Assembly: GCA_017439405.1 (NCBI GenBank)
Contig: JAFSJF010000075.1
Coordinates: forward strand, 1 to 33,612
From: Bacteroidales bacterium
GTDB lineage: Bacteria; Bacteroidota; Bacteroidia; Bacteroidales; F082
Direction of reading: 5' to 3'
Length of the DNA stretch: 33,612 bases
The notes beneath the pieces are model-generated. The model had not been told where the DNA came from. It saw nothing but the letters and a program-made list of their open reading frames with translations, and searched no databases. Below, piece by piece: positions 7,016 through 33,612 of this stretch. Position numbers and translations under genes: made by a program. Each line of letters begins with the position of its first letter. Positions within the stretch are counted from its first letter, which is position 1.

Positions 7016-8395
7016 ATGCTGTACAGGAAGTTCGAAAATCGCATCGAAGAGTTCTTTCGCAGCGAGCCGAACAAGATCCTTTTGGTGAACGGCGCCCGAC
7101 AGATTGGCAAGTCGTATCTCATCCGGTATGTCGGCAAGAAACTGTTCAAGAACTACGTCGAAATCAACCTCAAGGAAGACAAGGAAAGCCGCGGAATCTT
7201 CGCCACCGTGAGAAGCACAAGCGATTTCTATATCCAATTGGGTGTCATTGCGGGCAATCGCCTCGGCACCAAGGAAAACACCTTGGTTTTTTTGGACGAA
7301 ATCCAAAGTTATCCACACCTGATGACCATGTTGAAGTTTCTGAACCAAGAGGGGCGCTACACCTACGTGGCCAGCGGTTTGCAGTTGGGCGTGGCCTTGA
7401 CGCAGACCGCCTCCGTTCCTATAGGAAGCATTTCAATAGAAGAAATATATCCGCTTGATTTTGAAGAGTTTTTGCTTGCCATGGGTTGCGGACAGGAAAC
7501 CATTGACGGGATAAAGGAAAAGTTTCTCGCGGGAGAATCGCTGAATGAATCCTTGCACAACTACATGTTGCAGCAGTTCAAACTCTATTTGTTGGTCGGC
7601 GGGCTGCCCGAAGCCATCAACAAGTTCTTGGAAAACAGGAATATGGCGCAGGTGAGGAAGGTGCATCGCGACATTCACAACTTATACAGAATCGATGCCT
7701 CGCAATACGACGCGGAGAAGAAACTGCTCATTCGGAAGATTTACGACATGATTCCTTCCTACATGGAGAACAAGAAGAAGCGAATCATCGTGAAGCGCAT
7801 CGAAGAGACCGCCAAGCACAAGCAGTTCAACGACTATGCCGACGAGTTCGAGTATCTGACCAACTCGGGCATTGCCCTTGGCGTGCAAGCCGTTAGCAAC
7901 CCGAGGTTTCTGCTGCTGGAATCGGAGAGCAAGAACCTGCTCAAACTCTACATGAACGATGTTGGGTTGCTGACCAACCTTTTGTATGGCCTCAACATCA
8001 ATGCCGTGCTGCGCGACGAGCGCAGCATCAATCTCGGCTCGGTGTATGAAACGGCGGTGGCGCAAGAGCTTCATGCCCACGGCTTTGCGCTGCATTATTA
8101 CGACAACAAGCAGAAGGGCGAGGTGGACTATCTGATTGACGACTACGAGCACCTGACCGTGTTGCCCATTGAGGTGAAGTCGGGCAAGGACTACACCGTG
8201 CACAGTGCCTTGAACAATTTCATAAACACGCCCGACTACCACATCCAAAATGCCGTGGTGCTGAGCAACGAGCGAGAAATTTACATGAAAAACGGCATCA
8301 CCTATCTGCCTGTTTACTATTGCATGTTCTATCAACGGGATTTCGTGCGGGATGAAGGAGCGTTGATTGTGCCGGAGATCAATTATCCATCATAA
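7016..8395 (+). CDS. AAA ATPase with C-terminal DUF4143 nuclease-like domain
   Basis: 459 residues. Walker A is NGARQIGKSYL near residue 25 and Walker B is TLVFLDEIQ near residue 95. The C-terminal DUF4143 domain carries a PD-(D/E)xK-like pattern: GEVDYLID, then LPIEVKSGK (about residues 370-395). The family is abundant and frequently horizontally moved in Bacteroidales and archaea; its biological function is unproven, with roles in mobile elements or defence suggested. Its 3' end overlaps the convergent GIY-YIG gene by 13 bp. It sits in an accessory patch with the remnant of a second, different DUF4143 gene. Confidence 0.9.
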   Translation: MLYRKFENRIEEFFRSEPNKILLVNGARQIGKSYLIRYVGKKLFKNYVEINLKEDKESRGIFATVRSTSDFYIQLGVIAGNRLGTKENTLVFLDEIQSYPHLMTMLKFLNQEGRYTYVASGLQLGVALTQTASVPIGSISIEEIYPLDFEEFLLAMGCGQETIDGIKEKFLAGESLNESLHNYMLQQFKLYLLVGGLPEAINKFLENRNMAQVRKVHRDIHNLYRIDASQYDAEKKLLIRKIYDMIPSYMENKKKRIIVKRIEETAKHKQFNDYADEFEYLTNSGIALGVQAVSNPRFLLLESESKNLLKLYMNDVGLLTNLLYGLNINAVLRDERSINLGSVYETAVAQELHAHGFALHYYDNKQKGEVDYLIDDYEHLTVLPIEVKSGKDYTVHSALNNFINTPDYHIQNAVVLSNEREIYMKNGITYLPVYYCMFYQRDFVRDEGALIVPEINYPS

Positions 8396-9057
8396 GAGGA
8401 TTTTGCTTTTTCCATCTCGGTTCTCAAATCATCCAATACTTTCCCGTTGTAACTGAAAAATTTGGCACCTTGATAGGCACCGGAAGTGTTTCGCTTTTCA
8501 ACAGGCATAAATGTCCCCACAAATGGAGATAATTTGTAAATTCGCCCTTCGTATTCGATTTGGTCGTCACCAGCGACCTTCACTTTTATTCCCGTAGGAA
8601 TAAACGTCAGAATTGCACCAATTGGGATGTTCACCATGTTAAATTTAAAGCGCGGCCTCATTTTTTTATGGGTCTCACCATCAGACGTTTTTGCGTCTCG
8701 TTTTTGGATGGGTTGATTGTCCTCATAAAGAATCACTTCTGCGTCATCAACCGTCATGGCAATATCATTGAAAATATCAAGTGCCACCTGTGGAGCAACA
8801 TTGAAGAACTCGCGATTCTGCCTGATTCGCAAATCAGTCAAGCGGTCAATAGTTTTATGAACCAATTTCTCTACCTCATTATATTTGCAAGTTTTCATGG
8901 TCGCAAAAATCTCAAATGGCAATGGAACTGCCGTATTATCCAATTCCTTCGACCGCACATCAACTGGACGCGAACTCTTCCCAATCTTAACCCAATCTTC
9001 TTTGAAACTTGGATTGGTTAGGATATACACATAGCCTTGTTTAGAATCATCTTGCAT
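8383..9057 (-). CDS. GIY-YIG family protein with probable RAMA/DUF4357-like C-terminus
   Basis: 224 residues from the ATG at 9057. An ATG at 9084 is rejected because it lies inside the TACTTTTG promoter box. Residues 7-90 (GYVYILTNPSFKEDWVKIGK, then SRPVDVRSKELDN) match the T5orf172/MUG113 branch of GIY-YIG nucleases, in which GYVYI and KIG replace the classical motifs. Residues about 150-215 (IPIGAILTFIPTGIKVKV, EYEGRIYKLSPFVGTFM, GAKFFSYNGKVLDDL) look like the RAMA/DUF4357 fold found on restriction-modification-associated proteins. A modification-sensing nuclease or DNA-binding protein is an inference. It stands alone with its own promoter and overlaps the DUF4143 ATPase tail to tail. Confidence 0.72.
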   Translation of the reverse strand: MQDDSKQGYVYILTNPSFKEDWVKIGKSSRPVDVRSKELDNTAVPLPFEIFATMKTCKYNEVEKLVHKTIDRLTDLRIRQNREFFNVAPQVALDIFNDIAMTVDDAEVILYEDNQPIQKRDAKTSDGETHKKMRPRFKFNMVNIPIGAILTFIPTGIKVKVAGDDQIEYEGRIYKLSPFVGTFMPVEKRNTSGAYQGAKFFSYNGKVLDDLRTEMEKAKSSYDG

Positions 9058-9081
9058 GGTTGCATTGTTTTTTGTTGGCGA

Positions 9082-9089
9082 CAAAAGTA
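9082..9089 (-). promoter_or_regulatory. -7 box (TACTTTTG) deciding the GIY-YIG start
   Basis: Minus-strand TACTTTTG overlaps an upstream in-frame ATG at 9084, so translation must begin at 9057 if this promoter is used. Confidence 0.6.
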
Positions 9090-25246: not shown

Positions 25247-26357
25247 AAATCACCTTCATATCATCTCTTTCGATGTGCCTTATCCTGCGAATTACGGAGG
25301 GGTTATCGATGTTTTCTACCGTGTGAAGGCGCTTACTGAGGCGGGCGTCAAGGTGCATTTGCATTGTTTTGAGTACGGTCGCGGCGAGCAGGAGATCTTG
25401 AACCGTTGCCATGAGGTAAAGTATTATAAACGAGATACTTCCTTTGTCAAACAGTTGAGTCTCACGCCGTTTATCGTCAATTCGAGGCGGTCTGATGAGT
25501 TGGTCAAAAATCTGTTGGAAGACGATTATCCGATTCTTTGCGAGGGGCTGCATACTACGGCTGTTTTAAGTGATAAAAATCTGATAAACAGAAAGATGTT
25601 TGTTCGTGCCCACAATGTGGAACACGATTATTACAAGGCTTTGGGCAAATCGGAAAGATGTTGGTGGAAACGCCTGTTTTATCTTGCAGAGTCATGGAAG
25701 TTAAAGCGTTATGAATCGATTTTGAGCAATGCAGCAGGCATTTTTGCCATCTCGCAAAAGGATGCGGACTATTTTTCGGGGAAATATAGTAGTGTGACGC
25801 TTGTGCCTGGCTTCAATTCAGCTGATTCGGTGTGTTCGGAAACGGGTAGGGGCGACTATGTGCTCTATCACGGCAACCTTTCCGTCAGGGAGAACGACGA
25901 CGCAGCCAAGTGGCTGATAGAGAATGTGTTTGTTGAATTGGATTTTCATTGTGTCATTGCCGGCCTGAACCCCTCGGAAAAGTTGGTTAAACTGGTCGAA
26001 AAGCATTCCAATGTAACGTTGATTGCCAATCCCGACGATGCCGAGATGATTGACCTCTTGAGGCAGGCACAGGTGAATATTTTGGTGACTAACCAACCTA
26101 CTGGGTTGAAACTGAAGCTGTTGAATGCGCTCTACAATGGGCGCTTTTGCATTGTAAACGAGGATATGGTGAGGGGAACTTCGTTGGAAAGCCTTTGTGT
26201 CGTGGCCGATGAACCTAAGCAAATGATTGCAGAAATCAAGCGGCTGATGGAGGAGGACTTCACGGAAAATGACATTGAGGAACGTGATGTACAAATGCGG
26301 CAACTTTATGACAATGAGGCTAATGCGCGAAAAATCATCGAGGCGGTTTTTCGATAG
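25239..26357 (+). CDS. Glycosyltransferase, GT4-like
   Basis: 372 residues from the ATG at 25239, chosen because homology begins at HLHIISFDVPYPANYGGVID and because it overlaps the upstream stop by only 8 bp; an earlier in-frame ATG at 25137 would overlap by more than 100 bp. Visible: VRAHNVEHDYYKALGKSERC (typical of this group), YVLYHGNLSVRENDDAAKWL at the start of the second Rossmann domain, and TGLKLKLLNALYNGRFCIVN in the nucleotide-sugar site. The partner gene is the GT4 immediately upstream. It abuts the convergent ftsE stop with no gap. Confidence 0.87.
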   Translation: MTENHLHIISFDVPYPANYGGVIDVFYRVKALTEAGVKVHLHCFEYGRGEQEILNRCHEVKYYKRDTSFVKQLSLTPFIVNSRRSDELVKNLLEDDYPILCEGLHTTAVLSDKNLINRKMFVRAHNVEHDYYKALGKSERCWWKRLFYLAESWKLKRYESILSNAAGIFAISQKDADYFSGKYSSVTLVPGFNSADSVCSETGRGDYVLYHGNLSVRENDDAAKWLIENVFVELDFHCVIAGLNPSEKLVKLVEKHSNVTLIANPDDAEMIDLLRQAQVNILVTNQPTGLKLKLLNALYNGRFCIVNEDMVRGTSLESLCVVADEPKQMIAEIKRLMEEDFTENDIEERDVQMRQLYDNEANARKIIEAVFR

Positions 26358-27208: not shown

Positions 27209-28000
27209 CTACCAACTTCCCGAGGCTCCGCCGCCGCCGAAGCCTCCTCCTCCGAAGCCTCCGAATCCACCACTGCTTCCCCCACCACTAAAGCCTCCAC
27301 CACCGAATCCGCCCATTGGAATCCAGATGGTGCGCGTGCCGCCGCCGGAATAGGACTGGCCGTTGTTGTCGGAAAACTTGGAGAAGATGATGATGAGCGC
27401 GATGAAGAAGAGGACGAGAAGCCAAGTAGGGAAGTCCTCGTCTCCTGCGTATTCGTCTTGCGTGAACTTGCCCGAGCAGAGGTCCATCATCACGTTGACG
27501 GCATTGTCGATGCCCGTATAGTAGTCGTTTTCCTTGAAGGCGGGAATCATTTCCTTCTCGATGATGCGCTTGGCCGTGGCATCAGTGACGTATTCCTCGA
27601 TGCCATAGCCCGTGCTGATGGTCACCTTGCCGTTTTCGCTGCCTTTCTTCGGTTTCACCAAAATGACCGCACCGTTGTTCTTGCCTTGCTGTCCCACGCC
27701 CCAGCTGTGGCCGATTTCCGTGGCGTATTGCTCGATGCTGTAGCCTTGAAGGTCGTCAACCAACAGGACTAAGAATTGGGTCGAGGTGCTGTCGTTGTAG
27801 GCCACAAGCTTGTGCTCCAAAACGCCGATTTGGTGGGCGGTCAGGGTGCCTGTGTAGTCGTTCACCAAGCGCGGCGGGTTGGGCGGCGAGGGCAATTGGG
27901 CCTTCGATGTTGATGCGAACAAAAGCAGGATGAGTGTGAGAAGTAATGTAAGCTTCTGTCGTTCAATTGTTTTCGTATGATATTTCGTCGGGGATTTCAT
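27209..28000 (-). CDS. TPM-domain membrane protein (YgcG-like)
   Basis: 263 residues. Signal peptide or anchor KLTLLLTLILLLFASTSKAQ, then the TPM (DUF477) domain (RLVNDYTGTLTAHQIGVLEH through NAVNVMMDLC), a transmembrane helix (TWLLVLFFIALIIIFSKF) and a Gly-rich tail (GGFGGGGFSGGGSSGGFGG), the standard YgcG layout. The TPM domain resembles plant Psb32; bacterial roles are unknown. Translation overlaps the upstream TPM gene by 38 bp. The LemA gene that usually completes this operon is not next to it here. Confidence 0.9.
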   Translation of the reverse strand: MKSPTKYHTKTIERQKLTLLLTLILLLFASTSKAQLPSPPNPPRLVNDYTGTLTAHQIGVLEHKLVAYNDSTSTQFLVLLVDDLQGYSIEQYATEIGHSWGVGQQGKNNGAVILVKPKKGSENGKVTISTGYGIEEYVTDATAKRIIEKEMIPAFKENDYYTGIDNAVNVMMDLCSGKFTQDEYAGDEDFPTWLLVLFFIALIIIFSKFSDNNGQSYSGGGTRTIWIPMGGFGGGGFSGGGSSGGFGGFGGGGFGGGGASGSW

Positions 28001-28406
28001 TGATGTCGTCGGATTGGTAGGGGTAATAAGTCTTGAGTTTCTCGCCGCAGCGCATGATGCCTTGCTCGAGACCTTCGGCGAAACGGCCTTCGCGGAAAAG
28101 GCTTTGCATCAGGTCTTTCACGTCGTTCCAGAAGCCTTCTTCGACGACTTGGTTGATGCCTTCGTCGCCGAGGATGGCGAACTTGTGGTCGCGCACGGCA
28201 AGGTAGATGAGCACGCCGTTGCGGAGCTTTGTCTCGTTGAGTTTCAGTTTGTTGAAGACGACGAGGCTGCGTTGCTCCACGCTGCCCTTGCAGCGGTTCT
28301 CGATGTGTACCTTGATTTCGCCCGAGGTGTTCAGCTCGGCCTGCTTGATGGCCTCCACGATGCGGCGGTCTTCTTCGCGGTTGAGTATGGTGATGGCGTT
28401 GGACAT
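27963..28406 (-). CDS. TPM-domain protein, soluble form
   Basis: 147 residues from the ATG at 28406; the ATG at 28427 lies in the promoter box. A single TPM domain: REEDRRIVEAIKQAELNTSG, EIKVHIENRC, GVLIYLAVRDHKFAILGDEG and FAEGLEQGIMRCGEKLKTYY. No signal peptide or membrane helix. It pairs with the YgcG-like protein downstream, as in the LemA-TPM-TPM clusters of Bacteroidetes. It was probably the ancestral downstream neighbour of htpG before the insertions at 28548-33168. Confidence 0.88.
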   Translation of the reverse strand: MSNAITILNREEDRRIVEAIKQAELNTSGEIKVHIENRCKGSVEQRSLVVFNKLKLNETKLRNGVLIYLAVRDHKFAILGDEGINQVVEEGFWNDVKDLMQSLFREGRFAEGLEQGIMRCGEKLKTYYPYQSDDINEIPDEISYENN

Positions 28407-28422
28407 ATTGGTTGCTTTTGAG

Positions 28423-28442
28423 TGCAAAAATAGTCATTTTCC
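28423..28442 (-). promoter_or_regulatory. Promoter of the TPM operon, 20 bp identical to 32281-32300
   Basis: Minus-strand GGAAAATGACTATTTTTGCA contains the -7 box TATTTTTG. The same 20 bases drive the toxin-antitoxin operon at 32281-32300, and 29162-29180 is a relative. Confidence 0.7.
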
Positions 28443-28495: not shown

Positions 28496-28527
28496 ATGAC
28501 CGCCTCAACAATCGTCAGGGCGGTCAT
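28496..28527 (-). terminator. Terminator after the distal htpG 3' copy
   Basis: Perfect 9-bp arms ATGACCGCC/GGCGGTCAT, then AGTCATTTTTG on the minus strand. GACTATGAC (28492-28500) can alternatively pair with GTCATAGTC (28536-28544). Confidence 0.7.
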
Positions 28528-28547: not shown

Positions 28548-28651
28548 TTACAGCTTCTCCAAAATCCTCTTCACAAACTCGTTCAAATCCTTGCCTTTCA
28601 GCAAGTTCTTCGAGAGCAAAGCAAGGTCGTAAATCTGCCTGATGGTGGCAT
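28548..28651 (-). pseudogene. htpG 3'-end copy 3 (distal)
   Basis: The minus strand encodes ATIRQIYDLALLSKNLLKGK, DLNEFVKRILEKL and a stop at 28548-28550, the C-terminus of HtpG. In the 99 bases shared with the resident gene I count about 19 mismatches, but only about 6 with the copy at 30590-30704. Its upstream end stops at the toxin pseudogene, whose stop codon is 7 bp away. Confidence 0.92.
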
Positions 28652-28657
28652 CTGCTA

Positions 28658-28932
28658 TTATCCAAACAAATCCGAATGTGTTCCTGTGTCGATCATCACC
28701 ATGACAAGGCGGTATTCCTCTTTTGCCCAAACCAACAGCCAATTAGGTTTAATGTGACATTCCCAAAAACCAGCGTAATTACCTGTCAGTTTGTGGGGCT
28801 GGTATTTTTCTTGGAGCGTACTGTCTCTTTTAGTTCGGCGATGACGGATTCAAGCAGGGAAAGGTCATAACCCCGCTTTTTCAGAAGTTTGACCTTTCTC
28901 TTGAACAGCCCAGTATATTCAACTTCGTACAT
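28658..28932 (-). pseudogene. YafQ/RelE-family toxin, frameshifted
   Basis: The minus strand begins MYEVEYTGLFKRKVKLLKKR and continues to ELKETV, after which the frame runs to an early stop. In the next frame the homologous tail is intact: EKYQPHKLTGNYAGFWECHI, then KPNWLLVWAKEE and a final DTGTHSDLFG. Restoring one G in GAGACAGTACGC (as ACAGGTACG) rejoins the frames into a 91-residue YafQ-type mRNA interferase, so this is a one-base deletion. The start overlaps the antitoxin stop (TAATG). The toxin should be inactive as written, leaving an intact antitoxin alone. Confidence 0.85.
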
Positions 28933-29141
28933 TATTGCAGGCATTGTTCAATCAAGTCGTGCGCATCCTTGGCCTTGTAGGTCTTGCCGGAACGGTATTC
29001 GGCAATAGCCTCGTCCAAAGAGCCTTTCTTTGACTTTGAGGTGCTTTGCTCTGTTACTTTCCCGCCAAGTGTAATGAACAGCTCTAAGAGTTTCCTCATT
29101 GCGGTACTTCTGCCATCATATTCTATCGTTGCTGTAGCCAT
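28932..29141 (-). CDS. Antitoxin of a YafQ/RelE-type module
   Basis: 69 residues, starting MATATIEYDGRSTAMRKLLE. The N-terminal part looks like the ribbon/short-helix DNA-binding end and the C-terminal segment LDEAIAEYRSGKTYKAKDAH DLIEQCL is the toxin-wrapping tail seen in Bacteroidales RelB/DinJ-like antitoxins. The overlap with the toxin by one base and its own TATATTTG promoter support the assignment. Autoregulation is expected for the family. Confidence 0.75.
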   Translation of the reverse strand: MATATIEYDGRSTAMRKLLELFITLGGKVTEQSTSKSKKGSLDEAIAEYRSGKTYKAKDAHDLIEQCLQ

Positions 29142-29161
29142 TTTGTTTCATTTTACGCCTG

Positions 29162-29169
29162 CAAATATA
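29162..29169 (-). promoter_or_regulatory. -7 box (TATATTTG) for the antitoxin-toxin pair
   Basis: Minus-strand TATATTTG, 21 bp before the antitoxin ATG and just past the stop of htpG 3' copy 2. Confidence 0.6.
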
Positions 29170-29177
29170 CTCATTTT

Positions 29178-29230
29178 TTACAAACTTGCCATATTCCTCT
29201 TCACAAACTCGCTCAAATCCTTGCTTTTCA
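29178..29230 (-). pseudogene. htpG 3'-end copy 2 (short)
   Basis: 53 bp encode KSKDLSEFVKRNMASL plus stop, the last 16 residues of HtpG. Over its inner 42 bases it differs from the copy at 30590 by one base and from the resident htpG by about seven. The stop codon of the ATPase (29228-29230, TGA) is read from within this copy in another frame. Confidence 0.85.
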
Positions 29231-30409
29231 GCTTAGTTTTAGATGCCTAAAATTGCAGAATCCATTATCATTCTCAAAGTTTTCCTGGTCTCCGTCATAA
29301 ATCACCATTGTTTTGGAAAGGTTGTCTTTCAATAGCGTTTTCAGATAGGTGAGGTTGCTGAACAAATCCTGGGAATAGGTCTTGCAGGATTTGACTTCGT
29401 AGGCCTCCACCTTGCCTGGGAGCAGCCGCAATACGTCCACTTCGTGTTTACTCTTGTCACGGTAAAAGAACAGTTGTTCTTCCTCGCCTCTGTTGCTTCC
29501 GAATTTCATGATGTCGTTCACGACTAAGTTCTCAAACAAGGAACCTCGCAGCGGATGTGTGTCCATTTGCTCAGAGGTTTGGATTCCCAGAAGGAATGAG
29601 GCCAAGCCTGTATCGTAGAAATAGAGCTTCGGCATTTTGGTCAATCGTTTGCCTATATTGGCATAGTAAGGGTGGAGAAGATAAACGACATACGAAGCTG
29701 ACAGGATGCTGAGCCAATGGCGTATGGTGTTCACGGCTACACCCGTCTCAACGGCTAAGTTGGAAGCGTTGAATTCCTGTCCGATTCTTGCCGCGCAAAG
29801 CCGGATAAAGGTTTGGAAGGCCTGCAAGTCCTTGATGTTGATGAGCTTGCGAATGTCGCGTTCAATATAAGTGGTGTAATAGTTTGAAAGCAACATCCTT
29901 CGGGCTTGAGGATCGGTTTTCCATACGGCAGGATAACCGCCGTAGAGAATCAAATCCGAAGTTTCGATGTCGCCACTGTCGGCAATCAGTTCGCTCGTGG
30001 AAAGTGGCATCAGGCTCATGACGGCGCTTCGCCCAGCCATCGATTGGGTTACTTTCTCCAAAAGGGCGAAATTGTTGCTCCCTGTGACAACATAATGAAT
30101 GTCGCTTCGACCTTTGAAAATCGCATCGTCAACCGCCACTTGAAGGTAGGAAAAGATTTCGGGATAGTTTTGTGCTTCGTCGATGATTAGTCCGTTGGGG
30201 TGTTTCCCGAGAAAGCCTTTGGGGTCGGCTTGCACTTCCGCCAACGTGGAAAGGTCTTCAAGGTTGACGTATGGCATGTCGGGGAAAGCCATCCGGCAAA
30301 GGGTGGTTTTGCCTGATTGACGAGGACCCGTCAGCGTGATGACGGGAAAATGATTGTAAACTTCTTTTATTGTACTTTCTAAATTTCTATTTATCAATTT
30401 ATTATCCAT
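29228..30409 (-). CDS. AAA ATPase with C-terminal DUF4143 domain
   Basis: 393 residues. Walker A LTGPRQSGKTTLCRMAF near residue 30, Walker B NGLIIDEAQNYPEIFSYLQV, sensor-like VVTGSNNFALLEKVTQSMAG, and the DUF4143 domain with HEVDVLRLLPGKVEAYEVKS (PD-(D/E)xK-like pattern). It belongs to a different subgroup from the ATPase at 7016. The last codons run into htpG 3' copy 2, which supplies the stop. Function is unproven; these ATPases are frequent cargo on Bacteroidales mobile DNA. Confidence 0.9.
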   Translation of the reverse strand: MDNKLINRNLESTIKEVYNHFPVITLTGPRQSGKTTLCRMAFPDMPYVNLEDLSTLAEVQADPKGFLGKHPNGLIIDEAQNYPEIFSYLQVAVDDAIFKGRSDIHYVVTGSNNFALLEKVTQSMAGRSAVMSLMPLSTSELIADSGDIETSDLILYGGYPAVWKTDPQARRMLLSNYYTTYIERDIRKLINIKDLQAFQTFIRLCAARIGQEFNASNLAVETGVAVNTIRHWLSILSASYVVYLLHPYYANIGKRLTKMPKLYFYDTGLASFLLGIQTSEQMDTHPLRGSLFENLVVNDIMKFGSNRGEEEQLFFYRDKSKHEVDVLRLLPGKVEAYEVKSCKTYSQDLFSNLTYLKTLLKDNLSKTMVIYDGDQENFENDNGFCNFRHLKLS

Positions 30410-30446
30410 GATTTGGCCAAATTTGCAGTTTGATTGAAAATTTGGA

Positions 30447-30454
30447 CAAAAATA
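30447..30454 (-). promoter_or_regulatory. -7 box (TATTTTTG) for the DUF4143 ATPase
   Basis: Minus-strand TATTTTTG, 38 bp before the ATPase ATG. Confidence 0.55.
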
Positions 30455-30510
30455 ATGTTTTTTTGTATTATGGAGCCATTTTTGGAAAAAAATACTTCAA
30501 TTGGGACTTT

Positions 30511-30530
30511 TTTTGTTTCTAGAAACAAAA
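30511..30530. other. Perfect 20-bp palindrome
   Basis: TTTTGTTTCTAGAAACAAAA is an uninterrupted palindrome between the terminator at 30532-30572 and the ATPase promoter. It may be an operator, or part of the transcription stop for the minus strand, where it supplies a T-rich tail. Confidence 0.6.
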
Positions 30531-30531
30531 T

Positions 30532-30572
30532 GCCGCAGCCAAGCAAAACCTTGCCTCGCTGCGGCTTTTTTT
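30532..30572. terminator. Terminator after htpG 3' copy 1
   Basis: Arms GCCGCAGC (30532-30539) and GCTGCGGC (30558-30565) with a T7 run on the plus side; on the minus strand the hairpin is followed by ATTTTGTTTC. Likely stops the operon ending at 30590. Confidence 0.7.
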
Positions 30573-30589
30573 ATGTCAATTACTGACCT

Positions 30590-30704
30590 TTACAGTTTCT
30601 CCATATTCCTCTTCACAAACTCGCTCAAATCCTTGCCTTTCAGCAAGTTCTTCGAGAGCAGTGCAAGGTCGTAAATCTGCCTGATGGTGGCTTCCTGCTC
30701 GGCT
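30590..30704 (-). pseudogene. htpG 3'-end copy 1 (longest)
   Basis: 115 bp encode AEQEATIRQIYDLALLSKNL, LKGKDLSEFVKRNMEKL and a stop at 30590-30592. Identity to the resident htpG begins abruptly at AEQE; upstream is the AbiEii gene, whose stop codon is 4 bp away. I count about 15 mismatches in 99 to resident htpG but about 6 to copy 3. Confidence 0.93.
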
Positions 30705-30707
30705 CTT

Positions 30708-31346
30708 TTATGGGCTTTCACCAAACCGTTTGTTTAGGCAAAAAGTCATCTCATTAAGCCGCGCGGCAATGGCGTTCCAATCGAATTTTCCTTGCATCAT
30801 GACCACGTCCTCGTCGAAATTGATGTCGTCGAAATAAACCAATGATTTTGTTGGGACAAGAGGGTTGGACGAAGGAAACTTCTGTTTATAGAATTCTAGC
30901 ATCTCGCCAAAGCTGTAAACCGTCGAGAGATAGGCAATGTCGATGAAATCCTTGATACGGGAGCCGTTGTCGCAAATCGTGGAGAGTTTCATGGCCAAAA
31001 TGTCAGGAAGGCTTTCCATGCGGATGCCCTCTTCGGTTTCGACAGGGCTGATATGCGGGTAATCGTAACGGATAAGGTCAACCATCACATTGCCGATGAA
31101 ACCTTTAAGCGTCTTGCCTTTTTCGTAGCCTACTTTGAGGTCGTACTTGTTGACAAGCAACTCTTTAACTTCCTGCATGTCGAAATCTTCTTTGGAGAAC
31201 AAGTCCAAATCAACGCTTTTGCGATGGCCTAAGCGCAAAGCCAACGAAGTGCCTCCAACCAAGTTGAACGTAGAAAGCAAAGGCTCCGCTTGTAACTTTT
31301 TCAGCAGTTCAAAAGTGCTTGTCTCGACTGTTTCCTTGTGTAGCAT
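30708..31346 (-). CDS. AbiEii-type nucleotidyltransferase toxin
   Basis: 212 residues from the ATG at 31346. The nucleotidyltransferase core is NLVGGTSLALRLGHRKSVDL DLF (GGTS plus DxD), followed by GFIGNVMVDLIRYDYP and DILAMKLSTICDNGSRIKDF, the expected K...K-D-F-D pattern of the AbiEii family. AbiEii toxins of type IV systems inhibit translation by modifying tRNA or related targets, and are linked to abortive phage infection. The partner is the DUF6922-like gene upstream, which overlaps its start by 46 bp. The stop codon is 4 bp from htpG 3' copy 1. Confidence 0.9.
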   Translation of the reverse strand: MLHKETVETSTFELLKKLQAEPLLSTFNLVGGTSLALRLGHRKSVDLDLFSKEDFDMQEVKELLVNKYDLKVGYEKGKTLKGFIGNVMVDLIRYDYPHISPVETEEGIRMESLPDILAMKLSTICDNGSRIKDFIDIAYLSTVYSFGEMLEFYKQKFPSSNPLVPTKSLVYFDDINFDEDVVMMQGKFDWNAIAARLNEMTFCLNKRFGESP

Positions 31347-31639
31347 AGCAGTTCCTCTTTTTGCAGGTTGAAGTAATGGCAAACGAAATTGACGTCGATG
31401 TCCGAAAGGTGCGGGATGCTCTTGATGATTTCGCGGAAGCCTTCAAAACCGCCGTAAAGGTCGAAAGCGCCATAGAAATCCTCTGGCCAGCCCAATTCCA
31501 CGACACGCTGCGCGACCAACGCCTTCGACCTTTGCCAATCAAAGGCACTCATGTCGTATTCCCAAAGCAGCGAAGGGTTGATGTGGTGGCCGTTGGGACG
31601 GTAGTTGGAGAATATCGTATATGTGTCGGGTGATGCCAT
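31301..31639 (-). CDS. DUF6922-like protein, probable partner of AbiEii
   Basis: 112 residues: LLWEYDMSAFDWQRSKALVA, ELGWPEDFYGAFDLYGGFEG, IPHLSDIDVNFVCHYFNLQK, ending near CYTRKQSRQ. This layout (short helical protein starting with a Leu-Trp-[ED]-[YF] segment and ending xxxCYxxKQ) matches the small protein encoded before AbiEii toxins in Bacteroidetes, which I recall as DUF6922. An antitoxin role is inferred from pairing. The N-terminal MASPDTYTIFSNYRPNGHHI is longer than typical. Confidence 0.72.
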   Translation of the reverse strand: MASPDTYTIFSNYRPNGHHINPSLLWEYDMSAFDWQRSKALVAQRVVELGWPEDFYGAFDLYGGFEGFREIIKSIPHLSDIDVNFVCHYFNLQKEELLCYTRKQSRQALLNC

Positions 31640-31648
31640 AATCCAAAA

Positions 31649-32056
31649 TTATTCTGAAATCATTTCTTTGAATGTCCTCAATGAAACCACATTCAAGGGC
31701 TTGTCAATTTCTGTTTCTCTAACATCACGGTCGCCAGAGACAAGATATTTTGAATTGGATTGGAATGCCAAATCAAACAGATAATTGTCTTTCGGGTCAC
31801 GGCAACCGGAAAATTTGGTTTGAATAGGAATCAAAGTGCTGATTTTCTCGTAAAACGAAATGTATGATTGTAAGGGCAAATGTAGGTATTTCTTGAATTT
31901 GTCACGGCTAATGACAAAAACTAATTCATCGGTAAGCTCCTTGGCACGGAAAAACTCGACATCATGATTTGCCATTAAATCAACGAGTTCGGTGAATTTC
32001 CCTTTCAAGAAATAGGAAATCCAAATGTTGACATCGAAGACGGTTTTATTGTCCAT
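31649..32056 (-). CDS. PIN-domain toxin (COG1569-like RNase)
   Basis: 135 residues. The acidic residues of the PIN active site are present: D8 (VFDVNIWIS), E44 (ELTDELVFVI), D90 (GCRDPKDNYLFDLA) and D109 (LVSGDRDV). The CRDPKDNYLFDLA segment is typical of the COG1569 group of PIN toxins. It would cleave RNA in the cytoplasm when not bound by its antitoxin. It overlaps the antitoxin by 11 bp and is 9 bp from the DUF6922-like gene. Confidence 0.9.
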   Translation of the reverse strand: MDNKTVFDVNIWISYFLKGKFTELVDLMANHDVEFFRAKELTDELVFVISRDKFKKYLHLPLQSYISFYEKISTLIPIQTKFSGCRDPKDNYLFDLAFQSNSKYLVSGDRDVRETEIDKPLNVVSLRTFKEMISE

Positions 32057-32261
32057 TCCTCACTTTTTTTACCTCTTCTACAATTTCTCTCATTGTGATG
32101 TTGTTCTTTTCTACCGAGTTGTCCAATCGTTTGGCCTCTTCCCATAAAAGCATCATCCTCAATTGCTTTTCCAATTCTTGTTGTTGGTTAGTGGCAAGTT
32201 GGGCCACCAAAATAGTGATTCTTTGGATGATGCTGTCCGTATTTAATGTTGCGCTTTCCAT
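32046..32261 (-). CDS. Antitoxin of the PIN toxin
   Basis: 71 residues from the ATG at 32261; the ATG at 32285 lies in the promoter box. MESATLNTDSIIQRITILVA is followed by QLATNQQQELEKQLRMMLLW and a C-terminal MREIVEEVKKVRNG segment typical of toxin-binding tails. No DNA-binding motif is obvious. It is the first gene of a four-gene operon with PIN, DUF6922-like and AbiEii genes. Confidence 0.78.
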   Translation of the reverse strand: MESATLNTDSIIQRITILVAQLATNQQQELEKQLRMMLLWEEAKRLDNSVEKNNITMREIVEEVKKVRNGQ

Positions 32262-32280
32262 TTTTCCTCGGTTTTTCACC

Positions 32281-32300
32281 TGCAAAAATAGTCATTTTCC
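32281..32300 (-). promoter_or_regulatory. Promoter of the two-module toxin-antitoxin operon
   Basis: Minus-strand GGAAAATGACTATTTTTGCA with -7 box TATTTTTG, identical over 20 bp to the TPM promoter at 28423-28442. It fixes the antitoxin start at 32261. Confidence 0.7.
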
Positions 32301-32379
32301 ATGATTTTTCATCCCAAATGGCTTGATGAAGCAATTTTTTCGTTTCTTTGCAATCTCAAACAACTAAAACACTACTGTT

Positions 32380-33096
32380 ATGAACGGGACTTTGAAGGCA
32401 GCAGCAGCCATAATGCTGATGATGGTTTTTGCGGTGGGATGTACAAAACCAAATGAGCCGAATAATGGAGGAAACACTAACGATAGTATTGTTGACCACA
32501 GCGGAACGCTCGATGGCCACGATTTTGTTGACCTAGGTCTTCCTAGCGGTACGTTGTGGGCCACTTGCAATGTGGGCGTGGATTCCATTGGGGATTATGG
32601 GGACTTCTTCGCTTGGGGTGAGACAAGCCCGAAAGCGGAATACCATTGGGAGAACTATAAGTATTACAATTATGCCACCAATATGTTGACCAAATATTGT
32701 GTCAATGATTGGGGTACGAATAGTGGCTACTACGGTCAAGAAGACCTGCTCGTTGTGCTGGAGGCCGTTGATGACGCTGCAACAGTCAATTGGGGTGCTG
32801 GCTGGCGCACGCCCACATGTGACGAGTGGCGGGAATTGAGGGATAATTGCTTGCACGAATACACGACCAGAAACGGCGTGAACGGGCATCTGTTCAAGTC
32901 GCCCAATGGCAATAGCATTTTTATTCCTGTTCGCCCCAGTTATTGCGATTGTTATGGCGAGTACTGGTCAAGTTCGCTTTATATTGATGTACCTCATTCT
33001 GCTTACAGGTTCTATTTTACTGAAACTGACTACAAAGTATCTGCCGAGGACCGTTGTAAGGCTGGTCTTGTAAGGCCGGTTTGTTCTGGAGAATAA
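32380..33096 (+). CDS. FISUMP-domain lipoprotein
   Basis: 238 residues. Lipobox at MMVFAVGC with a Cys near residue 21, then an Asn/Gly-rich linker and the Fib_succ_major/FISUMP domain: HDFVDLGLPSGTLWATCNVG, FAWGETSPKAEYHWENYKYY, WGAGWRTPTCDEWRELRDNC, and YWSSSLYIDVPHSAYRFYFT. These cell-surface proteins are abundant in gut Bacteroidales; function is unknown. It is the only plus-strand gene in the inserted segment, convergent with htpG. TTTCTTTG at 32343-32350 is a weak -7 box. Confidence 0.85.
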   Translation: MNGTLKAAAAIMLMMVFAVGCTKPNEPNNGGNTNDSIVDHSGTLDGHDFVDLGLPSGTLWATCNVGVDSIGDYGDFFAWGETSPKAEYHWENYKYYNYATNMLTKYCVNDWGTNSGYYGQEDLLVVLEAVDDAATVNWGAGWRTPTCDEWRELRDNCLHEYTTRNGVNGHLFKSPNGNSIFIPVRPSYCDCYGEYWSSSLYIDVPHSAYRFYFTETDYKVSAEDRCKAGLVRPVCSGE

Positions 33097-33114
33097 CTGG
33101 AATCGATAATACAA

Positions 33115-33150
33115 AAATCCCCGCAGCACCAAATGGCGTTGCGGGGATTT
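33115..33150. terminator. Bidirectional terminator between the FISUMP gene and htpG
   Basis: Perfect 11-bp arms AAATCCCCGCA/TGCGGGGATTT with a 14-nt loop; T-rich on both sides (CTTTTG on plus, TTGTATT on minus). Confidence 0.8.
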
Positions 33151-33168
33151 CTTTTGTAATACAATGAA

Positions 33169-33612
33169 TTATAAGTTGGCCATATTGCGCTTAACAAACT
33201 CACTCAAATCCTTTCCCTTCAGCAAGTTCTTTGAAAGCAGCGCGAGGTCGTAAATCTGCCTGATGGTGGCTTCCTGCTCGGCTTCGTCTTTGTCGAGTAA
33301 GCCGGTGATGACGGGGCTGTTCGTGTTGAGCATCAGCGTGTAGCTGTCGGGCATCGAGCCGTAGAACGACATCGGGCCGCCGCCCATCTGCTCCATCTCC
33401 TTCATACGGCGCATCCACTCGTTTTGGGTGACCTCAACGGGTGCGGCTTCGGCGCCTTCGTTGCTGAACTCCACGTTGAACTTCACCTTGTCGATCACCT
33501 TCTCGAAGGCGGCTTTCAAGGTCTCCTTCTGCTTGTCGTCGAGGCCCGAGGCGGCTTCCTTGTCGTCCTTCACGATGAGCTTGTCGATGGTGTTGGAGTC
33601 CACACGGGCAAA
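33169..33612 (-). CDS. htpG: Chaperone HtpG (Hsp90), C-terminal part
   Basis: The gene runs off the right edge; the last 147 residues are visible. HtpG is the bacterial Hsp90, an ATP-driven homodimeric chaperone. The segment covers the C-terminal dimerisation domain: VDSNTIDKLIVKDDKEAASG, NEWMRRMKEMEQMGGGPMSF, DSYTLMLNTNSPVITGLLDK and the terminal helix IRQIYDLALLSKNLLKGKDL. The resident 3' end is intact, and downstream of it lie three truncated copies of the same end. A bidirectional terminator follows the stop codon. Confidence 0.96.
   Translation of the reverse strand, partial: FARVDSNTIDKLIVKDDKEAASGLDDKQKETLKAAFEKVIDKVKFNVEFSNEGAEAAPVEVTQNEWMRRMKEMEQMGGGPMSFYGSMPDSYTLMLNTNSPVITGLLDKDEAEQEATIRQIYDLALLSKNLLKGKDLSEFVKRNMANL

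What the first reader, a model, noticed from the sequence alone, without database searches (positions are those of the whole stretch)
28548..33612. Serial copies of the htpG 3' end, each fused to foreign toxin/ATPase cargo
Seen: downstream of the intact htpG there are three truncated htpG 3' ends (115, 53 and about 104 bp), same strand, all ending at the HtpG stop codon but starting at different points. The gene upstream of each copy ends 0-7 bp from the join: AbiEii toxin (4 bp), DUF4143 ATPase (stop read from the copy), YafQ-like toxin (7 bp). Known: integrative elements that target a gene's 3' end restore that end and leave the old one at the far side. Inference: the htpG 3' end is a repeated acquisition site that has stacked 'cargo plus 3' end' units between htpG and the TPM operon. 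The variable break points and absence of an integrase argue against simple site-specific integration and for a homology-assisted or cassette-like process.
Basis: partly seen in the sequence, partly recalled or inferred. Interest (0 to 1): 0.88.

Follow-up and report, generated by a model that had tools for sequence, protein, structure and literature searches.

The report
Toxin-cassette array stacked at htpG's end
In a group of gut bacteria, mostly from ruminants, small toxin, defence-like and surface-protein genes pile up behind the chaperone gene htpG, many joined to a leftover copy of that gene's last 50 to 115 letters, so the layers show in what order such a gene cluster was built.

Summary
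Three orphan copies of the htpG 3' end (115, 55, about 105 bp) follow htpG on its strand, each ending at the HtpG stop and abutting AbiEii, a DUF4143 ATPase and a frameshifted YafQ gene. It is not unique: 17 such fragments lie in 13 of 61 htpG loci fetched from 58 genomes of one Bacteroidales genus, between htpG and the TPM genes. Comparison reads like strata: what follows a fragment in one species follows the intact htpG in another (96.5% in the best case), so the newest block sits next to htpG. One cargo|fragment junction recurs in several species with different sequence after the fragment. Where species share a new front block, the shared part begins within the last 34-54 bp of htpG in three of five groups. 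Close relatives of the cargo lie at this locus, not elsewhere. No integrase turned up among the interval genes scanned. A second locus (rseC-rnfB, one genome) has the same anatomy against empty sites in relatives. Best reading: a front-loading cassette array whose blocks are exchanged by short-homology recombination at the htpG 3' end; a recombinase acting in trans is not excluded. Closest known kind: gene insertion with long, variable target duplication.

The parts
33169..33612 (-). 3' part of htpG (last 147 codons); the contig ends inside the gene
   Evidence: ORF and alignment; 82-99% protein identity to single-best matches in 35 of 40 first-fetched loci, less in the rest
33118..33149 (.). 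terminator-like hairpin after htpG, shared with the convergent lipoprotein gene
   Evidence: read from the sequence
32380..33096 (+). antiparallel lipoprotein-like gene, 238 aa, weak Lcl_C match; the recurrent first gene of the blocks
   Evidence: (E 1e-5, below Pfam's cut-off)
32046..32261 (-). small ORF before the PIN gene, putative antitoxin (by position; no Pfam match)
31649..32056 (-). PIN_3 / TIGR00305 putative toxin
31301..31639 (-). DUF6922 gene, upstream partner of AbiEii
30708..31382 (-). AbiEii nucleotidyltransferase toxin
   Evidence: Pfam E 4e-18; PADLOC AbiEii E 7e-8
30590..30704 (-). htpG 3' fragment 1 (115 bp)
30532..30565 (.). terminator-like hairpin after fragment 1
   Evidence: read from the sequence
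29228..30409 (-). AAA_14/DUF4143 ATPase; PADLOC candidate defence gene PDC-S01
   Evidence: 91% relative (residues 187-393) at the htpG contig of G077
29178..29232 (-). htpG 3' fragment 2 (55 bp), between the DUF4143 stop and the next cassette's start region
28932..29141 (-). putative antitoxin ORF before YafQ (by position; no Pfam match)
28658..28944 (-). YafQ toxin gene, frameshifted
   Evidence: 52-aa piece, below Pfam's cut-off; two pieces; intact relative L038 scores E 4e-32
28548..28652 (-). htpG 3' fragment 3 (105 bp, perhaps 109)
28498..28525 (.). terminator-like hairpin after fragment 3
   Evidence: read from the sequence
27209..28427 (-). two TPM-type genes, the conserved far flank
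   Evidence: Pfam TPM_phosphatase for 27963-28427; TPM gene found downstream of htpG in 49 of 61 loci

Best explanation
The htpG-to-TPM interval is a front-loading cassette array. A block (terminator, an antiparallel lipoprotein gene, often a toxin-antitoxin or ATPase gene, and at its far end a piece of an htpG 3' end) is joined in at the 3' end of htpG. The block brings its own last few dozen bases of htpG, so the chaperone gene stays whole, and the resident 3' end is left behind the new block as a fragment with its terminator. Repeats of this stack blocks, the newest next to htpG. Once a cargo is followed by an htpG 3' end it is flanked by short direct repeats (about 50-110 bp); recombination at these, between chromosomes or within one, can move, swap or delete it. 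Shown: fragments, strata, recurrent junctions with changing right sides, edges near -34 to -55 in several cases, locus-bound cargo. Inferred: that the agent is the host's short-homology recombination (homologous or strand annealing) on incoming or excised DNA, that first joins are made at microhomology, and that cargo genes use the htpG terminator as their own.
For: 17 fragments in 13 of 61 loci, all on the htpG strand and ending within 4 bp of the stop. Strata: sequence after the fragment in L046 equals that after the intact htpG in L035 (96.5%, 1138 bp); L036 fragment to L041/L180/L040 (93-95%); L041 and L039 fragments to L046 (94-95%). Same junction, different continuation: HicA (L034, L035, L037), YafQ (L036, L038, L039), PIN (L039, L041, L046), lipoprotein upstream region (L040, L042). 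Left edge: 8 of 8 pairs that share the front block have 0 mismatches in the last 33 bp of htpG against a mean of 5.5 and no zero in 549 baseline pairs; 7 of 8 have 6-9 mismatches in -96 to -49, like the baseline mean 6.4. Cargo relatives above 84% lie on htpG contigs: YafQ 3 of 3 besides the window, PIN 3 of 3, ATPase 14 of 16 with 2 unchecked; next best at most 59-66%. Microhomology: the 12-mer GGCAAGGATTTG of htpG (-48 to -37) also lies in hairpins behind htpG ends in L037, L055, L068, and the PIN junction joins such a half hairpin to it. Same anatomy at rseC-rnfB in G036, with 21 of 25 relatives' intervals at 52-209 bp. Fragment trait scattered on the htpG tree (8 changes, shuffled mean 7.6; 8 of 13 fragment loci could be placed).
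Against: Homologous recombination over 50 bp between diverged species is expected to be rare. The left edge is not constant: within the last 10 bp or beyond the stop for L051/L178, upstream of -247 for L190/L191. Right joints range from -49 to -115. Many blocks end without an htpG fragment (cargo to terminator or to lipoprotein gene), so the fragment is not a required part. No excised or circular form was seen. One genome per species; all are MAGs or drafts.
Confidence: 0.6

Rival explanations
1. Site-specific integration of non-autonomous cassettes: a recombinase encoded elsewhere recognises htpG at about -55 to -34, and each cassette carries a matching end.
For: Six of ten junction types start at -49 to -55, and in three of five groups the left edge lies between -34 and -54. 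The joints fall beside a short inverted repeat read in the sequence (CTTGC-TGAAGG-GCAAG). Newest-first order and locus-bound cargo fit too.
Against: Four of ten junction types lie at about -80 to -115; the cargo side of the joints shows no shared motif by eye; no integrase among 25 of 26 Pfam families shown for 39 chosen interval ORFs; the same anatomy at rseC with an unrelated end sequence.
Confidence: 0.18
2. Ordinary allelic exchange: foreign DNA recombines with one arm anywhere in htpG and is joined illegitimately near the resident htpG end (homology-facilitated illegitimate recombination; minimal-mobile-element behaviour).
For: Variable right joints; one group (L190/L191) with an edge at -247; poorly resolved htpG tree (10 of 45 inner branches starred).
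Against: Crossovers should spread over all of htpG, yet in three of five groups the sequence upstream of about -50 is as diverged as in baseline pairs; recurrent junctions with new right sides call for crossovers inside the fragments.
Confidence: 0.14
3. Y1 (IS200-like, HUH) transposase genes drive the insertions at hairpin-rich gene ends.
For: A Y1_Tnp gene follows rseC directly in the G036 insert and a related family follows htpG in L052, L062, L063, L066 and L185.
Against: None of these five htpG loci has an htpG fragment, and the cluster was not seen in any of the 13 loci that have one.
Confidence: 0.04
4. Assembly chimeras, or tandem copies of htpG decayed to their 3' ends.
For: All loci are from MAGs or drafts; many contigs end inside htpG.
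Against: The same junctions recur in different assemblies and projects (records matched to genomes by equal contig length). Fragments are 80-93% identical to their own htpG, not copies of it. Terminators and lipoprotein genes of successive units differ.
Confidence: 0.04

Closest known systems
Insertion with long, variable target duplication of restriction-modification genes (Nobusato 2000; Furuta 2010; seen only as cited in passages of PMC3031569, the papers themselves not read)
   Same: A selfish or defence-type gene inserted without an element's own integrase, flanked by a long and variable direct repeat of the target.
   Different: Cargo here is toxin-antitoxin, ATPase and lipoprotein genes, no R-M gene seen; the target is the same gene end again and again, stacking newest first, and the repeat serves as the later exchange point.
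Neisserial minimal mobile elements (passage in PMC3388099; details recalled)
   Same: Interchangeable gene sets between conserved flanking genes, integrated by homologous recombination.
   Different: Fragments of the flank gene lie between successive units, and most resolved left edges are at the gene's very end.
Core defence hotspots of Pseudomonas aeruginosa (passages of PMC10250203)
   Same: Defence-type genes between constant core genes, no obvious mobile element; flank recombination proposed as the route.
   Different: Here the order and joints of acquisition can be read from the gene-end fragments; units are small.
Integron cassette arrays (recalled)
   Same: Compact cassettes, newest first, short linkers of about 50-115 bp.
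   Different: No integrase found, no folded attC-like site, and the linker is a piece of a housekeeping gene.
Composite SCC-type islands at the rlmH 3' end (recalled)
   Same: Tandem elements each restoring a gene's 3' end.
   Different: No recombinase gene found in the array; break points vary; repeats are longer.

Membership tests
Insertion with long target duplication | long direct repeat of target sequence flanking the insert, variable length | tested here: met
   48-115 bp in 17 fragments at htpG; about 77 bp at rseC
Insertion with long target duplication | empty target in relatives | tested here: met
   rseC-rnfB 52-209 bp in 21 of 25 genomes; htpG-TPM 81 bp in L072 and 258 bp in L061
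Insertion with long target duplication | restriction-modification cargo | tested here: not met
   no R-M family among those shown for the scanned interval ORFs
Integron | integron integrase next to the array | tested here: not met
   none among 25 of 26 Pfam families shown for 39 chosen ORFs; not every one of 426 ORFs was scanned
Integron | folded attC-like recombination site | tested here: not met
   DNA folding z-scores 0.1 to 1.0 for htpG end and three fragments, no better than shuffles
Site-specific island in a gene 3' end | own recombinase | tested here: not met
   a recombinase elsewhere in the genomes was not sought
Site-specific island in a gene 3' end | constant crossover core | tested here: inconclusive
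   6 of 10 junction types at -49 to -55, others at about -80 to -115; left edges -34 to -54 in 3 of 5 groups
Minimal mobile element | different gene content between the same conserved flanks | tested here: met
   TPM gene downstream in 49 of 61 loci, intervals 81-7545 bp, contents differ
Minimal mobile element | crossovers throughout the flanking genes | tested here: inconclusive
   1 of 5 groups at -247; 3 of 5 confined to the last 34-54 bp; 1 within the last 10 bp or beyond
Core defence hotspot | enriched in experimentally supported defence systems | tested here: inconclusive
   AbiEii and candidate PDC-S01 matched in PADLOC; YafQ, HicA and PIN did not; enrichment not measured

The most novel reading that the evidence does not exclude
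The htpG 3' end (about -55 to -34) is the attachment site of an undescribed cassette system: promoter-bearing toxin, defence and surface-protein cassettes are loaded newest-first behind a housekeeping gene, and the gene-end fragment works as the cassette's recombination site, an integron-like logic without an integron integrase, with a machinery that also acts at other gene ends such as rseC.
Probability: 0.16. Interest if true: 0.9.

Novelty: new variant of a known kind. Interest (0 to 1): 0.62.

Why it matters
How defence and toxin-antitoxin clusters form at fixed chromosomal sites without visible mobile elements is put forward as open in the passages I saw of PMC10250203. Here each unit leaves a datable joint: a piece of the old gene end with its own terminator. 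That gives the order of acquisition, the break points and the exchange partners in one comparison, and makes the route testable: short-repeat recombination, one-armed import or a hidden recombinase. It also suggests a search rule, orphan 3' ends of core genes, for finding such sites; rseC-rnfB came out of a first use of it.

Tried and rejected
attC-like folding of the htpG end: no better than shuffles. Mobile carriers: no match of 28548-33168 in plasmids or phages, and no exact match of a degenerate htpG-end pattern in viral contigs. A dispersed cassette family: the close cargo relatives are at this locus (window DUF4143), apart from two unchecked ATPase copies near the same gene neighbourhood (G057:C8, G079:C18). 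Lipoprotein gene as a high-copy element: 14 matching stretches in the own genome, only three of similar full length.

htpG as the only such gene: not supported as a strict claim. In 932 ORFs on 1.23 Mb (five contigs of other genomes, in part, plus the window) the last-150-bp probe gave 23 rows of partial copies outside any called ORF, the first-150-bp probe 25 and the middle probe 4. Six of the 23 are htpG. I looked closely at three more genes: rseC has the same anatomy, an aminotransferase gene in a polysaccharide-type cluster has a faint relic, one is a spurious ORF. The other rows were not followed. An earlier run on fewer contigs and other loci (838 ORFs) also contained tandem paralogues.

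Dropped before counts: one 24-bp hit at window oriented position 25532 (E 0.005, one allele); one 29-bp hit far from rnfB in L313; L047/L048, two contigs of one MAG with the same sequence, from the group count. A genome-wide absence of fragments elsewhere is limited: the one-query search saw only 10 of the 14 fragments outside the window that are now known, and scored about eight candidates per genome. Its other second matches are second htpG contigs (G031, G077, G086) and one 28-bp match in G096. Thirteen of the 71 genomes with a match were not fetched.

Literature: searches showed no paper on htpG as an insertion site of this kind among the listings and abstract starts I saw; only passages of PMC3031569, PMC3874152, PMC10250203 and PMC3388099 were read.
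Full report
What is there. The window is the whole contig C57 of a 3.5-Mb, 159-contig draft genome and ends inside htpG. On the minus strand, after the HtpG stop, come a hairpin, an antiparallel lipoprotein-like gene, a PIN toxin gene with a small ORF before it, DUF6922 and AbiEii genes, htpG fragment 1, a hairpin, an AAA_14/DUF4143 ATPase (PADLOC candidate PDC-S01), fragment 2, a small ORF and a frameshifted YafQ gene, fragment 3, a hairpin and the TPM genes. The fragments are 115, 55 and about 105 bp and end at the HtpG stop.

How widespread. In 99 genomes of the genus, 71 matched the last 152 bp of htpG at E 0.001. I fetched 60 loci from 57 of the other 70 genomes, those with two matches first, and with the window had 61 loci from 58 genomes. 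A TPM gene lies downstream of htpG in 49 of 61, at 81 to 7545 bp. Seventeen fragments lie in 13 loci; all are on the htpG strand and end within 4 bp of the stop; aligned starts run from -48 to -108 by BLAST, with the window's longest at -115 by eye. One of the 13 (L073) has no TPM gene on its contig, and one (L037) has no intact htpG on its contig.

What abuts the fragments. Thirteen of 17 lie next to a toxin or ATPase gene: YafQ in four, HicA in three, PIN in three, AbiEii in two, DUF4143 in one, with gaps from overlap to 22 bp. Four (L040, L042, L041 first, L073) abut the upstream region of a lipoprotein gene, with no cargo gene. Not every joint has a fragment: in 4 of the 11 joints after the common ATPase family that I printed, the ATPase stop runs straight into a terminator-like hairpin, in 6 into the 3' end of a lipoprotein gene, and in one into other sequence (L047 and L048, two contigs of one MAG, are both counted).

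Strata. Sequence directly behind a fragment in one species matches the sequence directly behind the intact htpG in another: L046 to L035, 96.5% over 1138 bp; L036 to L041, L180 and L040, 93-95%; L041 and L039 to L046, 94-95%; older layers at 83-89%. So new blocks go in at the front. The same front block (97% over 1206 bp) sits before different residents in L036 and L038; the PIN block sits before L035-like and L175/L181-like residents.

Joints as exchange points. Four junction families recur in two or three species each, while the sequence after the fragment's stop differs. On the left side, species pairs that share at least 95% of the first 300 bp after htpG, and differ by 4-9.5% in htpG itself, have no mismatch in the last 33 bp in 8 of 8 pairs; 549 baseline pairs average 5.5 and none has zero. 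From -96 to -49 seven of the eight look like the baseline. These eight pairs form four groups; a fifth group (L051/L178, too short for that test) shares 99% downstream but differs already at -10, and L190/L191 share htpG up to -247. So the edge is at -34 to -54 in three of five groups, and elsewhere in two. Ten junction types on the right start at about -115, -105, -88, -80, -55, -54, -54, -52, -51 and -49; the -80 is my reading of degenerate sequence.

Microhomology. The 12-mer GGCAAGGATTTG at htpG -48 to -37 also lies in the hairpin behind htpG ends in L055, L068 and L037, and occurs once in 300 kb of G065:C3; the PIN junction joins half of such a hairpin to htpG exactly at that word. This is one family; for the others no shared word was established.

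Locus-bound cargo. Relatives of the L038 YafQ at 88-100% are at the htpG contigs of G074, G052 and G014; the window's two pieces are 71-77%; longer matches elsewhere reach 59%. For the ATPase 16 places are 84-100%, 14 of them on htpG contigs fetched here, two unchecked; the rest reach 59%. For PIN three places at 99-100%, all on htpG contigs, then 66%. The window DUF4143 has a 91% partial relative at the htpG contig of G077 and otherwise at most 59%. No match in plasmids or phages.

A second locus. A scan for orphan 3' ends on 1.23 Mb led to rseC-rnfB in G036. There a 3.47-kb insert holds a Y1_Tnp gene (Pfam E 5e-21) and a 728-aa lipoprotein-type gene pointing the other way, and ends in an rseC 3' fragment (aligned -77 to -10, 78%, E 4e-9) whose stop lies 86 bp before rnfB; 21 of 25 genomes have only 52-209 bp there. 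Three of 25, the window's own genome among them, have a 1.35-kb insert with an ATPase gene and no fragment (Pfam tested for L305 only). This speaks against a process that only recognises htpG, but it is one genome and one old copy.

Mechanism. I favour short-homology recombination at htpG ends, with cassettes that carry such ends becoming exchangeable. It explains changing right sides, left edges inside the last few dozen bases, newest-first order and locus-bound cargo without an integrase. A recombinase acting in trans explains the clustering at -49 to -55 at least as well, but not the junctions at -80 to -115 or the rseC case. One-armed import with an illegitimate right joint may have made the first joins. 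No folded site was found. Of the interval ORFs I scanned 39 chosen representatives; the only transposase- or integrase-like family among the 25 of 26 shown was Y1_Tnp, from loci without fragments.

Limits. One genome per species; MAGs and drafts; the order inferred from pairs, not from a resolved species tree (htpG tree: 10 of 45 inner branches well supported, bootstrap not settled, fragment trait scattered).

Noticed in passing
L293 (G036:C40), rseC-rnfB, about 192.5-196.5 kb: 3.47-kb insert with Y1_Tnp and a lipoprotein-type gene and an rseC 3' fragment before rnfB, an empty site in most relatives.
   Followed up: partly
G065:C3, minus strand, aminotransferase gene in a polysaccharide-type cluster: Faint relic (73% over 77 bp) of the gene's 3' end about 1.4 kb downstream, behind a 405-aa ORF.
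   Followed up: no
L305, L316, L322 (rseC-rnfB): 1.35-kb insert with an ATPase gene and no rseC fragment; L322 is the window's own genome.
   Followed up: no
L040, L036, L041, L050 front blocks: A 469-476 aa membrane-type protein starts with nearly the same residues as the lipoproteins (MNR-LKA-AA), as if only the 5' end were shared.
   Followed up: no
5' ends of the lipoprotein genes in many loci: A stretch of about 160-200 bp at the 5' end and upstream is alike between blocks whose gene bodies and cargo differ; a possible second exchange point.
   Followed up: partly
upstream of lipoprotein genes in L073, L041, L177: Recurrent short palindrome-like intergenic sequence with TTTCCGCACC.
   Followed up: no
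contigs of G053, G072, G070, G048, G063, G080, G055 and the window: Many MAG contigs end inside htpG, several at similar distances from its stop.
   Followed up: no
G031, G077, G086: Two htpG contigs in one MAG; in G031 both carry the same sequence.
   Followed up: no
window 7016-9084: A further ATPase ORF that reads like the DUF4143 type, beside a convergent 233-aa ORF; not scanned.
   Followed up: no
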